DNA of 64,000 nt, from the NCBI RefSeq assembly GCF_018141545.1, contig NZ_CP064356.1, forward strand, positions 2,183,001 to 2,247,000, read 5' to 3'. The number at the start of each line of letters is the position of its first letter. The stretch's first letter is position 1. Of this stretch, positions 9,859 through 13,796 are shown one piece after another. The notes under the pieces were generated by a model. It had not been told where the DNA came from. It ran no database searches and was given only the letters and a program-made list of their open reading frames with translations. The position numbers and the translations under genes were made by a program. Source of the DNA: Miltoncostaea oceani. Lineage in GTDB: Bacteria; Actinomycetota; Thermoleophilia; Miltoncostaeales; Miltoncostaeaceae.

Positions 9859-10308
9859 ATGTCCGATGACGAGATGGATGTCGACCAGGTCCTGACGCTG
9901 CTGAACGCGGCGTTGCGACTCCAGCAACGATCCGCGCTGCAGCTGTCGCTCGCGGCGGGCGGGCTGACCGGCCTCGCCGGCCAGGCCCTCGCGCCGCGCC
10001 TCGCGGCCTCCGCCGCCGAGGAGCTCGGCGACGCGCGGCGGCTCGTGGAGAAGATCGTCGCCCTCGGCGGCGACCCCACCGACGAGGTGGCGCCGCTCGC
10101 CTGGCACGAGGACGCCCTCGACATGGTCGGCGCGCTCGTCCGCCAGGAGGAGGAGGCCGTCGCCGCGCTCCACGCCGTGATCCCCCCGACGGGCCAGGAG
10201 CCGCGGTCCGAGGCGCTCGAGCACCTGGTGGAGCACCTCATCATGCGCAAGCAGGGGCAGGTGGACATGCTCCTGCGGGTGCTGCGCGGGGCGGGCGGCC
10301 CCGCCTGA
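9859..10308 (+). CDS. Ferritin-like four-helix protein with incomplete diiron ligands
   Basis: The 149-residue protein has four amphipathic helices and the EELGDARRLVEKIVALGGDP spacing of bacterioferritin/Dps-like proteins. The usual helix A Glu is a Gln here (LRLQQRSALQ) and the helix B His is an Arg (EELGDAR instead of EExxHA), so a normal diiron site seems absent. It may be a structural or DNA-protective relative. The start ATG has a weak TACTCC box 7 bases upstream. It runs convergently into the second ferritin-like gene, with a shared terminator between. Confidence 0.65.
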   Translation: MSDDEMDVDQVLTLLNAALRLQQRSALQLSLAAGGLTGLAGQALAPRLAASAAEELGDARRLVEKIVALGGDPTDEVAPLAWHEDALDMVGALVRQEEEAVAALHAVIPPTGQEPRSEALEHLVEHLIMRKQGQVDMLLRVLRGAGGPA

Positions 10309-10347: not shown

Positions 10348-10845
10348 CTACGCGTACTCGCGCAGGTAGCGCTCGAAGGTGCGCAGGTGCGACTCCTCGT
10401 CGCGGAGGATCTCGATCACCATGTCCTGCGTCGCCCAGTCGACGCCGTCGCAGGCCTCGATGATCCGCAGGTAGTGCTCGATGGCGCCCTTCTCGGCCTG
10501 GATGACGCCCTCGATCACGGGGACCACGTCGGCCCCGTCCTCGAGCGGCTGCAGGTACGTCTGCTCCGGGGCGAATCCGGCCGAGCCGGGCGGCGTGCCG
10601 TACAGCTCCTTGATGCGCGCGGCGAAGCGGCGGGCGTGCCCGAGCTCCTCCTCCACGTCCTCGGAGAGCGCCTCGGCGATCTCGTCGGCCCGGATGCCGT
10701 CGAGGTTCTCGGAGTTCGCCAGGTAGCTCATGACGGTCTCCATCTCCATCCAGTACGCGCGCCGCAGCAGCTCGAGGATCTCCTCGCGCTTGGCGGACTG
10801 GGCGTCGGACAGGATGCCCGTGGCGACCCTGCTCTGGGTCCTCAT
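10348..10845 (-). CDS. Ferritin-like (bacterioferritin-type) diiron protein
   Basis: The 165-residue four-helix protein keeps a full ferritin ligand set: Glu in MEMETVMSYL, Glu and His in EELGHARRFAARIKEL, Glu in QAEKGAIEHYL, and Glu and His in RDEESHLRTF. It likely oxidises or stores iron, or detoxifies peroxide. The ATG at 10845 follows a GGGAGG by 9 bases, so it has a leader, unlike many neighbours. It is divergent from the fur-type gene across about 100 bases, which suggests control by that regulator. Confidence 0.8.
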   Translation of the reverse strand: MRTQSRVATGILSDAQSAKREEILELLRRAYWMEMETVMSYLANSENLDGIRADEIAEALSEDVEEELGHARRFAARIKELYGTPPGSAGFAPEQTYLQPLEDGADVVPVIEGVIQAEKGAIEHYLRIIEACDGVDWATQDMVIEILRDEESHLRTFERYLREYA

Positions 10846-11408: not shown

Positions 11409-13082
11409 CTAGGCCGCGAGCAACTCGTGGACGAAGCGGACGGTCAGGGCGCCGTCCCCGACCGCGCCCGCGACGCGGTTCGACGCGCCGGCGCGCACGT
11501 CGCCGGCCGCGAAGACGCCGGGACGGACGGTCTCGAGCAGGTGCGGGGGGCGCTCCTCGAGCGGCCAGTGCAGGCGCCCGTCGCAGGCGGCGGCGCCCGG
11601 CCCGCAGAGGAGGTAGCCGGCCGCGTCCATGCGCAGGATGCCGCTGGCCGCCTCGGTGCACGGCTCGGCGCCGATCATCACGAAGACCGCCGCCACCGGG
11701 ACGCGCTCCTCGGCGCCGCTCGCGCCGTCGCGGAGCGTCACGGCCTCGACGCGGCGGGCGCCGTGCACGCCCGCGACCTCGGTGCGGGTCATCACCTCGA
11801 TGCGCGGGTTGCGCTCGACGCGGTCCACGAGGTAGCGCGACATCGTCTGGGAGAGGCCGGCGCCGCGCACCGCGACCCGCACGCTGCGCGCATGCCGGGC
11901 GAGGTGCATCGCGGCCTGTCCGGCGGAGTTGCCGCCGCCGACGACCACGACGTCCCGGTCGCGGTAGCGCTCGGCGTCCGCCGGCATCGCCGCGTGGTAG
12001 AGCCCCGCCCCCCGGTAGCGCGCGACGTCGGGGAGGTCGAGCTCCCGCCACCGCGCCCCCGTCGCCATGACGAGCGCGCGCGCCAGCACGTACTGCCCGT
12101 CGTCGAGGTCGACGCGCACGAGGCCCTCGGGGCCGTCGGCCAGCTCGACGGCGCGGTGGAAGCTCGACAGGACGGCGTCGAACCGGCGTGCCTGCAGGGT
12201 GGCGGCGCGCGTCAGCTCGGCGCCGGAGACGCCGCTCGGGAAGCCGAGGTAGTTCTCGATGCGGCTGCTCGTGCCGGCCTGCCCGCCGGGCGCCCACGCC
12301 TCGGCGACGAGCGTCCGCAGCCCCTCGGATCCGCCGTAGACGGCGGCCGCGAGCCCCGCCGGGCCGGCGCCGAGGACCACGAGGTCGAACCGCTGGCCGT
12401 CCACGTCGGCGCGCAGCCCCAGCTCGCGGGCGACCTGCGCCGCCGACGGGTTGCGCAGGATGCGGTCGCTGCGGATGAGGACGGGCGTCTCGGCGGGGGG
12501 GATCCCGAGCCAGTCGAGGATCTTCACCGCCTGCGGGTCCTCGTCGACGTCGTGGAACCGCACGGGGAGCAGGTTCCGCTCGAGGAGGTCGCGCACCTCG
12601 AACGCCCGTCGCGACCCGCGGTCGGCGATGAGGCGCAGCACCCCGTGGCCGGCGCCCTCGTGCCAGGCGCGCCGCGCGAGCAGGGTCCCGAGCACCAGCT
12701 CGCCCATCTCGGGCTTCGCCGCGAGCATCTCGCGCAGGCCGGTGCGGGCGAACGCGATCGCCTCGGTCGGCTCGGACGCGACGGCGGACACGATGGCCGG
12801 CTCGCCCGTGAACGTGGCGATGTCGCCGATGAACACGCCGCCGTCGGCCTCGGCGATCAGGACCTCCTTGCCCGGGTGCCGGTCGATGAACTCGACACGG
12901 CCGGACGCGATCACGAAGAACGGCGCGTCGCGCTGGCCCTGGGCGTACAGCACCTCGCCGGGCGCGAACGTCCGGCGCTCCCCGTGCTCCGCGAACCACG
13001 CGACCTTCTCGTCCGTCAGCCGCGGGTACAGGACCGGGTCCCCGAGGTCGGGGAACGGCTCTGCCCGGATCCGCGGCGTCAT
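11409..13082 (-). CDS. Cyclic-nucleotide-domain FAD-dependent reductase, thioredoxin-reductase-like, without CxxC
   Basis: The 557-residue protein has three parts. Residues about 20-140 form a cNMP-binding beta barrel (LYAQGQRDAPFFVIASGRVEF, FIGDIATFTGEPA). Residues about 150-225 resemble a glutaredoxin-like insert (LPVRFHDVDEDPQAVKIL). Residues 230-557 are a TrxB-like two-dinucleotide fold (VVLGAGPAGLAAAVYGGSEGL, VMATGARWREL, VVVGGGNSAGQAA, GVFAAGDVRAG). Where thioredoxin reductases carry CATC, this one has YHAAMPADAE, so a dithiol cannot form. It may pass electrons from NAD(P)H to another partner. Its start lies 7 bases after a TAGCTT box. Confidence 0.8.
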   Translation of the reverse strand: MTPRIRAEPFPDLGDPVLYPRLTDEKVAWFAEHGERRTFAPGEVLYAQGQRDAPFFVIASGRVEFIDRHPGKEVLIAEADGGVFIGDIATFTGEPAIVSAVASEPTEAIAFARTGLREMLAAKPEMGELVLGTLLARRAWHEGAGHGVLRLIADRGSRRAFEVRDLLERNLLPVRFHDVDEDPQAVKILDWLGIPPAETPVLIRSDRILRNPSAAQVARELGLRADVDGQRFDLVVLGAGPAGLAAAVYGGSEGLRTLVAEAWAPGGQAGTSSRIENYLGFPSGVSGAELTRAATLQARRFDAVLSSFHRAVELADGPEGLVRVDLDDGQYVLARALVMATGARWRELDLPDVARYRGAGLYHAAMPADAERYRDRDVVVVGGGNSAGQAAMHLARHARSVRVAVRGAGLSQTMSRYLVDRVERNPRIEVMTRTEVAGVHGARRVEAVTLRDGASGAEERVPVAAVFVMIGAEPCTEAASGILRMDAAGYLLCGPGAAACDGRLHWPLEERPPHLLETVRPGVFAAGDVRAGASNRVAGAVGDGALTVRFVHELLAA

Positions 13083-13121: not shown

Positions 13122-13301
13122 TCAGTCCTTGTCGCCCTCGGGCTCGGCGCCGGCGACGACGATCCCGGCGTGCCAGCGGGCGAAGCGCCCCTCGGGGGTC
13201 TCCATCCACTCCCGCAGGTCGCGCTCGAAGCGCCCCCACACGCGGGCGCGGGCGCCGTAGGCGGGGAAGACCTCGATCTCGCTCGTCCGCATGTCACGCA
13301 T
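13122..13301 (-). CDS. Small hypothetical protein, 59 residues
   Basis: I do not recognise this protein. It has no membrane segment. The middle carries aromatic and charged residues (VFPAYGARARVWGRFERDLREW) and the C-terminus is acidic. The ATG at 13301 follows an AAGG by 8 bases; a second ATG at 13292 lacks such a site. The codon pattern matches its neighbours, so I regard it as a real gene. It is on the same strand as the cNMP-domain reductase, just upstream of its promoter. Confidence 0.5.
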   Translation of the reverse strand: MRDMRTSEIEVFPAYGARARVWGRFERDLREWMETPEGRFARWHAGIVVAGAEPEGDKD

Positions 13302-13376
13302 GAGGGTGACCTTACACGACGCCGTAGGGGCGATGGACGGGCCGGGTGTCACGGGTGCGCGGGGACGCGCGTGCCC

Positions 13377-13388: not shown

Positions 13389-13796
13389 GTGACCGCCGCG
13401 CTCCTCCACGACCGCGACTGCGGCTTCTGCCGTTGGTGCGCCGCGGTCGTGCTGACGCTCGACCGGCGCCGGGCGCTGCGGCCGGTGGAGATCCAGTCCC
13501 CCGAGGGCGGCCGCCTGCTGGCGGGCCTCGACACGGCGACCCGGATGGGCTCCTGGCACCTCGTCGGCGACGACGGGGTGCCGCGGTCGGCGGGCGCCGC
13601 GGTCGCCCCGCTGCTGCGGCTGCTGCCGGGTGGCCGCGTCCCCGCCGCGCTCGTCGCCCGGGTGCCGCGCGCCGCCGAGGCCGGATACCGCGCGGTCGCC
13701 GCGCGGCGCGGGCGGCTCGGCCGCCTGGTGCGCCCCCGCGCCCGCCGGTGGGCGGCGGACGTGATCGCCCGGAGGGCTACAGACCCAGCCGGGTGA
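13389..13796 (+). CDS. DCC-family (DUF393) thiol-disulfide oxidoreductase
   Basis: The 135-residue protein carries the family signature DRDCGFCRWC at residues 9-18, with the redox CxxC at positions 12-15, in a thioredoxin-like fold. The substrate of the family is not established. The GTG start is 6 bases from a TACCCT box and has no Shine-Dalgarno. Its 3' end overlaps the convergent era gene by 20 bases. Confidence 0.8.
   Translation: MTAALLHDRDCGFCRWCAAVVLTLDRRRALRPVEIQSPEGGRLLAGLDTATRMGSWHLVGDDGVPRSAGAAVAPLLRLLPGGRVPAALVARVPRAAEAGYRAVAARRGRLGRLVRPRARRWAADVIARRATDPAG

What the first reader, a model, noticed from the sequence alone, without database searches (positions are those of the whole stretch)
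11409..13082. Thioredoxin-reductase-like enzyme with a cyclic-nucleotide domain but no redox CxxC
Seen: intact FAD and NAD(P)H motifs follow a cNMP-binding domain and a thioredoxin-like insert; the site of the CATC dithiol reads YHAAMPADAE. So it should not reduce thioredoxin by the known route. Inference: a nucleotide-gated flavin reductase with another acceptor, next to iron and redox genes.
Basis: partly seen in the sequence, partly recalled or inferred. Interest (0 to 1): 0.5.

Follow-up and report, generated by a model that had tools for sequence, protein, structure and literature searches.

The report
Sensor-fused thioredoxin-reductase-like enzyme, no dithiol
This gene makes a flavin enzyme built like a thioredoxin reductase but lacking the cysteine pair such enzymes use, joined to a sensor-like domain; it belongs to a widespread and little-studied bacterial family whose common name is probably misleading.

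Summary
Window 11409-13082 (-) encodes an intact 557-aa protein: a CRP-like cyclic-nucleotide-type domain, a glutaredoxin-like domain without cysteines, and a thioredoxin-reductase (TrxR) core with FAD and NAD(P)H motifs. The CATC site reads A365-M-P-A368. This is a family trait: 0 of 107 aligned sequences (window included) have CxxC there.

The window's nucleotide pocket has no arginine where cAMP-binding domains hold the phosphate, so cAMP/cGMP gating is doubtful (some relatives do have an arginine near that place). The iron/redox neighbours were not found at 22 loci of close relatives. The cell has a separate normal TrxR.

Found on the way: 50 of the 107 carry a receiver domain instead, and 30 of 49 such loci hold a histidine kinase with a CRP-like domain, against 0 of 52 fused loci. 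The window protein thus looks like the one-piece form of a sensor-regulated flavoenzyme. Its electron acceptor is unknown. Cysteines C475 and C493 are conserved in its clade; I could not place them relative to the flavin. A published relative reportedly reduces thioredoxin, which argues against me.

The parts
11409..13082 (-). 557-aa fusion protein (CRP-like + glutaredoxin-like + TrxR-like)
12720..12974 (-). cNMP-binding-type (CRP-like) domain, residues 37-121
   Evidence: Pfam PF00027; model
12783..12833 (-). phosphate-binding-cassette segment, residues 84-100, FIGDIATFTGEPAIVSA; no Arg in it
12651..12713 (-). long helix 124-144 between sensor and insert (position of the CRP dimer helix, by inference)
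   Evidence: model secondary structure
12414..12641 (-). glutaredoxin-like domain without cysteines, residues 148-223
   Evidence: secondary structure; Pfam Glutaredoxin matched in 4 of 34 members of alignment A2 and in none of 38 of A1 at E<=0.01; no Pfam match for the window's own stretch
11418..12389 (-). TrxR-like FAD/NAD(P)H core, residues 232-555
11979..11990 (-). place of the CATC dithiol, residues 365-368 = A-M-P-A
11829..11843 (-). family-specific MSxYL motif, residues 414-418 (M, S, Y, L invariant in 107 of 107)
11658..11660 (-). Cys475, kept in 17 of 18 members of the window's clade; in 1 of the 101 other aligned sequences (L082)
11604..11606 (-). Cys493, kept in 15 of 17 clade members long enough to show it; in 0 of the 101 others

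Best explanation
It is a sensor-regulated NAD(P)H-dependent flavoenzyme of a known but little-characterised family. Shown: a CRP-like sensor-type domain, a glutaredoxin-like domain without cysteines, and a TrxR-fold core that keeps the FAD and NAD(P)H motifs but has no CxxC. Inferred: the core takes hydride from NAD(P)H in the domain orientation in which nicotinamide faces the flavin, and hands electrons straight from the flavin to an outside acceptor (a quinone, flavodoxin-like or small disulfide acceptor), as TrxR-like ferredoxin/flavodoxin reductases do. Inferred: the N-terminal domain binds a ligand other than cAMP or cGMP, or relays a conformational signal through its long helix, and so switches the core. 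In the sister half of the family the signal would come by phosphorelay: a histidine kinase with a CRP-like domain acting on a receiver domain fused to the same core.
For: No CxxC at the TrxR site (0 of 107) nor at the glutaredoxin-like active-site stretch 152-162 (0 of 107; 11 have a Cys there), while 60 positions of 149-557, FAD/NAD(P)H glycines among them, are identical in at least 103 of 107. Two alternative input domains on one core: 56 cNMP-type, 50 receiver-type, 1 unassigned; the consensus of alignment A2 keeps the Asp, Thr and Lys expected of a working receiver. A histidine kinase with a CRP-like domain in 30 of 49 receiver-type loci and 0 of 52 cNMP-type loci (Pfam of neighbours), also beside a receiver-type paralogue in the window's own genome. 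The tree separates the two input types with 2 changes (shuffled mean 37.8). AlphaFold models superpose best on TrxRs in the flavin-reducing (FR) form: window protein 2.5 A to 5mh4 (titled FR) against 6.6 A to 5mjk (titled FO), and 2.7 A to 1f6m against 7.0 A to 1trb/1tde (FR/FO of these recalled); receiver type 2.1 A against 8.1 A for 5mh4/5mjk, and 2.6 A to YpdA 7a76, which lacks CxxC (recalled). The same genome has a normal TrxR (CATCDGFFF, HRRDEFR) with a thioredoxin-like frame beside it.
Against: A related protein, ATII-TrxR (PMC6544261, passages read), is reported to reduce thioredoxin (kcat 28.4 per s) and DTNB with NADPH or NADH. In four plasmid loci of Rhodococcus and Streptomyces a relative lies next to, or one gene from, a thioredoxin gene. 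The two AlphaFold models share most of their alignment rows, so they are not independent; they hold no FAD; the flavin-side loop 264-285 of the window model has pLDDT under 50 and the receiver-type model is weaker overall (mean 74.8). Foldseek's top hit by E-value is AhpF, a CxxC enzyme. 11 of 55 readable cNMP-type sequences have an Arg at or near the cassette place, so nucleotide binding elsewhere in the family is not excluded. No acceptor and no ligand was identified.
Confidence: 0.5

Rival explanations
1. It is still a thioredoxin/disulfide reductase, but with another thiol route: the clade's C475/C493 (or C373 in most other members) takes the place of CxxC.
For: ATII-TrxR kinetics; a CxxC-less C. 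metallidurans relative; three of the four cysteine numbers given for ATII-TrxR (206, 223, 376) have the spacing found in that relative, so ATII-TrxR probably lacks CxxC too (and my arithmetic; the fourth, 467, and the protein length do not fit); C475 in 17 of 18 and C493 in 15 of 17 clade members; C373 in 75 of 107 of the wider family; a thioredoxin gene near some relatives.
Against: No cysteine column is shared by the family: C373 is Tyr in the window protein, C493 is absent and C475 nearly absent outside the clade. The DGF of the thioredoxin-docking loop is gone in 107 of 107. In the passages I read, the ATII study shows no cysteine mutants and no control for host TrxR.
Confidence: 0.27
2. 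It is a sensor or scaffold: FAD and NAD(P)H are bound as signals of redox state and the protein acts on partners without turning over a dedicated electron acceptor.
For: Both dithiols lost; an input domain on 106 of 107 members; zf-UBP zinc-finger genes within 6 kb of 21 of 102 family loci, suggesting a protein partner.
Against: FAD/NAD(P)H sites and the core are kept almost invariant, and a relative is reported active on DTNB.
Confidence: 0.13
3. One reading: cAMP/cGMP-gated flavin reductase that serves the neighbouring DCC protein or iron genes.
For: A cNMP-type domain is present; the genome has two matches to the Guanylate_cyc family; a DCC1-like protein is divergently encoded next door.
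Against: No Arg in the window protein's cassette segment; none of the window's neighbours was found at 22 loci of close relatives.
Confidence: 0.06

Closest known systems
NCBI-named 'cyclic nucleotide-binding domain-containing thioredoxin-disulfide reductase' (Rhodococcus pyridinivorans plasmid pA, Streptomyces angustmyceticus p1) and ATII-TrxR (PMC6544261)
   Same: Same order of domains; 41.0% and 44.5% identity over 100% and 96% of the query for the two plasmid proteins; also without CxxC
   Different: The window protein lacks their C373, has C475/C493, and sits in no chaperone/thioredoxin/zf-UBP cluster
[quoted passage not shown]
   Same: Receiver-type family members share the glutaredoxin-like + CxxC-less TrxR core; two copies in the window's own genome. 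That the paper's proteins are the same family is inferred.
   Different: Receiver domain, often beside a CRP-domain histidine kinase, instead of a fused CRP-like domain
Bacterial low-Mr thioredoxin reductase (TrxB)
   Same: Fold of the core (Z 29.1, 2.3 A over 299 residues to 3cty), FAD and NAD(P)H motifs
   Different: No CATC, no DGF loop, no HRRxxxR motif; two extra N-terminal domains
AhpF (alkyl hydroperoxide reductase subunit F)
   Same: TrxR-type core behind thioredoxin-fold domains (recalled); Foldseek's best E-value (4o5q, 2.3e-29); TIGR03140 142 bits
   Different: Far below the model's cut-off of 502.9; AhpF has CxxC pairs (recalled), the window protein none; AhpF has no CRP-like domain (recalled)
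TrxR-like ferredoxin/flavodoxin-NADP reductases and YpdA/Bdr
   Same: TrxR fold without CxxC (recalled); models superpose on B. cereus FNR2 (3.0 A) and, for the receiver type, on YpdA (2.6 A)
   Different: About 22% identity in those superpositions; the window protein has Ala242 (GAGPAGL) where YpdA has a working Cys (that Cys is recalled, not looked up)
Trypanosomatid PKA regulatory subunit (nucleoside-responsive CNB domain, PMC10959531, passages read)
   Same: CNB domain without the phosphate-binding Arg
   Different: The Glu that holds the nucleoside ribose there corresponds to Ala89 in the window protein (my alignment), so a nucleoside ligand is not implied

Membership tests
Thioredoxin reductase (TrxB, TIGR01292) | CxxC redox dithiol in the NADPH domain | tested here: not met
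   A-M-P-A at the site; 0 of 107 family sequences have it
Thioredoxin reductase (TrxB, TIGR01292) | score above the curated cut-off | tested here: not met
   194.2 bits against 343.45
Thioredoxin reductase (TrxB, TIGR01292) | HRRxxxR motif for the NADPH 2'-phosphate (role recalled) | tested here: not met
   absent in 107 of 107; present in the genome's own TrxR
Thioredoxin reductase (TrxB, TIGR01292) | NADPH-dependent reduction of thioredoxin | not testable with these tools
   needs an assay
cNMP/REC + glutaredoxin-like + CxxC-less TrxR family | domain order, absent CxxC, MSxYL and NSAGQ motifs | tested here: met
cNMP-responsive proteins (CRP, PKA-R) | cNMP_binding fold above Pfam cut-off | tested here: met
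   54.9 bits, cut-off 27.5
cNMP-responsive proteins (CRP, PKA-R) | phosphate-binding cassette Arg | tested here: not met
   window protein: no Arg in 84-100, Ala at the aligned place. Family: R-[ST or A]-A in 0 of 55 readable, but an Arg at or near the place in 11 of 55
cNMP-responsive proteins (CRP, PKA-R) | binding of cAMP or cGMP | not testable with these tools
   needs an assay
Glutaredoxin | CPxC or CPxS active site | tested here: not met
   S-R-R-A in the window protein; 0 of 107 with CxxC at 152-162
AhpF (TIGR03140) | score above the curated cut-off; CxxC pairs | tested here: not met
   142 bits against 502.9; no CxxC in the protein
YpdA / TrxR-like FNR | TrxR fold without CxxC, similar domain arrangement | tested here: inconclusive
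   superposition only; YpdA model TIGR04018 54.9 bits against cut-off 339.9

The most novel reading that the evidence does not exclude
The family is a two-format signalling module with a redox enzyme as output: a CRP-like sensor for an unknown, non-cyclic-nucleotide signal drives a thiol-free disulfide or quinone reductase either by direct fusion (this protein) or through a histidine kinase and receiver. The zf-UBP zinc-finger proteins and thioredoxins encoded beside a part of the members would be its electron-accepting partners, reduced directly by the flavin without a dithiol relay.
Probability: 0.2. Interest if true: 0.75.

Novelty: new variant of a known kind. Interest (0 to 1): 0.5.

Why it matters
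Many bacterial genes may carry the name thioredoxin-disulfide reductase without the residues that define that activity (my inference from the family's breadth). If the family is a thiol-free, signal-switched flavoenzyme, it would be a redox enzyme used as the direct output of one- and two-component signalling, and the one published enzymology of a member that I found would need re-examination. The window's genome holds the fused form, the two-component form and a normal TrxR side by side, which makes the contrast testable in one organism.

Tried and rejected
Rejected: that loss of CxxC is a quirk or an error of this one gene (0 of 107). Rejected: a functional unit with Fur, ferritins and DCC (no hit at 22 loci; over the loci held the only hits were the window's own locus L009 and, for one ferritin, locus L008 of the same genome). 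Rejected as weak: an MFS transporter near 6 of 17 clade loci other than the window; three of these loci share further neighbours and the MFS family is large. Considered: nucleoside binding as in trypanosomatid PKA; the key Glu is not there.

Mended on checking: I first took the cassette Arg to be absent in all cNMP-type relatives. A recount shows the strict motif in 0 of 55 readable, but some Arg in the segment in 24 of 56 and at or near the place in 11 of 55; in the clade, L192 has one a few residues further on. C475 also occurs in one sequence outside the clade (L082).

Led nowhere: the 62-codon ORF upstream (no Pfam family, hits only itself); NCBIfam gives no family above cut-off among the best 25 shown. 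Paper searches for this architecture: searches gave 0 papers; one search gave 3 and one search gave 241 (20 listed), nothing on point in the listings. (7 papers) was used from its listing only. ATII-TrxR was found; receiver/TrxR fusions are mentioned in PMC5847659. No statement that the family is unpublished goes beyond these searches.

Limits of the counts: the 107 (window included) are ORFs over 380 aa matching at E<=1e-40 and reaching from residue 175 or before to residue 500 or after of the query, near-identical ones removed, from loci I had fetched; shorter, partial and weaker ones were dropped. Wider flanks were fetched for 58 places among the listed matches plus two of the window's own genome, not all. 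Plasmid locus L088 was chosen because its hit line already named a zf-UBP gene. In one search, 17 of the 35 genomes were chosen because they had shown a zf-UBP gene near a family member, so I used that call only for a rough density. The kinase counts used three kinase queries taken from receiver-type loci, count a kinase anywhere in the locus held, and exclude the window itself, whose neighbours were read directly. My ORF caller for neighbours was a simple GC-by-codon-position rule and missed some genes, including the kinase at L152. For Pfam tallies I submitted 49 of 95 listed receiver-type neighbours and 66 of 101 listed cNMP-type neighbours. The tree is a quick search; the TrxR outgroup, L148 (a cNMP-type row inside the receiver branch) and L126 are among its long end branches.

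Full report
What is there. The minus-strand ORF 11409-13082 codes for 557 residues. Pfam finds a cNMP_binding domain at 37-121 and Pyr_redox_2 at 232-544. The AlphaFold2 model (mean pLDDT 84.5, pTM 0.78, 38 sequences) shows a beta-rich domain, a long helix 124-144, a strand-helix-strand-helix-strand-strand-helix unit at 149-221 (the glutaredoxin order, recalled) and a TrxR core. The core matches solved TrxRs with Z up to 29.1. TIGR01292 (thioredoxin-disulfide reductase) scores 194.2 bits, below its 343.45 cut-off.

The dithiol. Counting back from the GGG of the NAD(P)H motif, CATC corresponds to A365-M-P-A368. I aligned 107 family sequences, window included: none has CxxC at this place, 5 have a Cys in the four positions, and none has CxxC at the glutaredoxin-like active-site stretch 152-162. 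The DGF of the next loop, where thioredoxin docks in TrxRs (recalled), is absent in 107 of 107, as is HRRxxxR, which binds the NADPH 2'-phosphate (recalled). As controls, the genome's own TrxR has CATCDGFFF and HRRDEFR, and M. smegmatis TrxR shows HRRDEFR in the alignment. Family hallmarks are Y363 (100 of 107; H in 7, the window among them) and MSxYL (107 of 107). Loss of the 2'-phosphate motif makes NADH use plausible; ATII-TrxR is reported to use both cofactors.

Cysteines that do exist. Family-wide only column 373 is often Cys (75 of 107), and it is Tyr here. In the window's clade, C475 is kept in 17 of 18 members (Arg in L188, whose contig ends soon after), C493 in 15 of 17 and C500 in 11 of 17 (contigs held under two locus ids counted once). 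Among the 101 other aligned sequences C475 occurs once (L082) and C493 never; the commonest residues there are N and T. Residue 475 follows the strand that by homology leads from the NAD(P)H to the FAD domain; I could not measure distances to the flavin.

The sensor domain. Alignment to solved CRP-type proteins puts Ala where the phosphate-binding Arg stands, and the window protein has no Arg in residues 84-100. In the family the strict R-[ST or A]-A motif was found in 0 of 55 readable cNMP-type sequences (L060 is cut there), but 11 of 55 have an Arg at or near the place and 24 of 56 somewhere in the segment, so other members may bind nucleotides. Trypanosomatid PKA shows that such a domain can answer to other ligands, there to nucleosides (PMC10959531, passages read), but the residue responsible there is not present here. 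The genome has two matches to the Guanylate_cyc family, so absence of cyclic nucleotides is not the argument.

Two formats of one module. Of the 107, 56 carry the cNMP-type domain, 50 a receiver domain, 1 was unassigned. The consensus of the mostly receiver-type alignment A2 keeps the usual Asp, Thr and Lys. Among 49 scanned neighbours of receiver-type genes, HATPase_c (20) and cNMP_binding (19) were the two commonest Pfam families. A protein similar over its length to these cNMP-domain histidine kinases lies in 30 of 49 receiver-type loci and 0 of 52 cNMP-type loci. The window's own genome shows such a pair; with the GTG start I assume, the kinase frame overlaps the end of the receiver-TrxR gene by four bases. 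On the tree the two input types need only 2 changes against a shuffled mean of 37.8. My reading, an inference: a CRP-like sensor controls the core either in cis or through phosphorelay.

Partners elsewhere. zf-UBP zinc-finger genes lie within 6 kb of 21 of 102 family loci with flanks (8 of 52 cNMP-type, 13 of 49 receiver-type, 0 of the one unassigned); the density of 45 such matches in 35 genomes (a biased sample) would by my estimate predict fewer than one. In four of six annotated plasmid regions viewed, the gene follows a dnaK-grpE-dnaJ-cbpM-clpB-trxA run, three with a zf-UBP gene in between and one without; the other two show no such cluster but have a Dps-type and a ferritin-like gene nearby. 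A seventh region carried no annotation. The window gene has none of these chaperone, trxA or zf-UBP partners next to it, and the genome's two zf-UBP matches lie elsewhere.

Neighbours of the window gene. Fpg, two ferritin-like proteins, Fur (convergent), a 62-codon ORF just upstream, a divergent DCC1-like protein and Era (Era named from its sequence by recall). None was found at 22 loci of close relatives (17 distinct). Close relatives are patchy: 30 of 399 genomes of the class match the N-terminal 224 residues at E<=1e-30, and the window's genome is the only one of its own family among the 30; three genus mates are listed without a match. On the tree the window protein sits among sequences from other families of the class. 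Gain by transfer is likely but not shown.

Conformation. The window model superposes on TrxRs in the flavin-reducing form (5mh4 2.5 A; 1f6m 2.7 A) far better than on the flavin-oxidising form of the same proteins (5mjk 6.6 A; 1trb and 1tde 7.0 A). Only 5mh4 and 5mjk name their form in the title; for the E. coli entries it is recalled. The receiver-type model does the same (2.1 against 8.1 A) and fits YpdA at 2.6 A. An enzyme without a dithiol has no need of the other form. This is suggestive only: no FAD in the models, shared alignment rows, a flavin-side loop (264-285) below pLDDT 50, and a mean pLDDT of 74.8 for the second model. I ran no control model of a normal TrxR.

The contrary report. 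ATII-TrxR, a metagenomic protein with cNMP and TrxR domains, was reported to reduce thioredoxin and DTNB (PMC6544261; passages). The cysteines it names as redox centres are 206/223 and 376/467, not a CxxC. In the CxxC-less C. metallidurans CH34 relative, cysteines with the spacing of 206, 223 and 376 exist, the last on column 373, but 467 does not fit and neither does the length (my arithmetic), so this is a likely but not an exact match. If the activity is real, a CxxC-less core can reduce disulfides, and my preferred acceptor would change. I saw no cysteine mutants or host-TrxR control in the passages read.

Verdict. A real, intact, non-canonical TrxR-like flavoenzyme; the missing dithiol is the rule in its family. 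Calling it a thioredoxin reductase fails a defining test; calling it cAMP-gated is unsupported. The most useful new point is the two-format architecture with the CRP-domain kinase.

Noticed in passing
window 13122-13310 (-): 62-codon ORF (59 aa from its ATG) ending 39 bases upstream of the TrxR-like start; no Pfam family and no hit at other loci examined.
   Followed up: partly
window 9859-10308 (+) and 10351-10845 (-): Two ferritin-like proteins on opposite strands beside a Fur-family regulator; the second has a paralogue elsewhere in the genome, in locus L008 (58% identity).
   Followed up: partly
window 13389-13796 (+): DCC1-like protein with CGFC, divergent from the TrxR-like gene; not found near close relatives.
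   Followed up: yes
L152 around 5155 (own genome): Receiver-domain TrxR-like gene followed by a cNMP-domain histidine kinase, overlapping by four bases if the kinase starts at GTG.
   Followed up: partly
L104, L118, L122, L124: Three tandem cNMP-domain histidine kinase frames downstream of one receiver-TrxR gene.
   Followed up: no
L088 5308-5760, L089 5209-5652, L090 5221-5673: Plasmid thioredoxins with extra N-terminal CxxC pairs (zinc-ribbon-like), inside a chaperone cluster with zf-UBP and the TrxR-like gene.
   Followed up: no
L046, L187, L193, L194, L195, L198: MFS-type transporter gene near the TrxR-like gene at 6 of 17 clade loci other than the window.
   Followed up: partly
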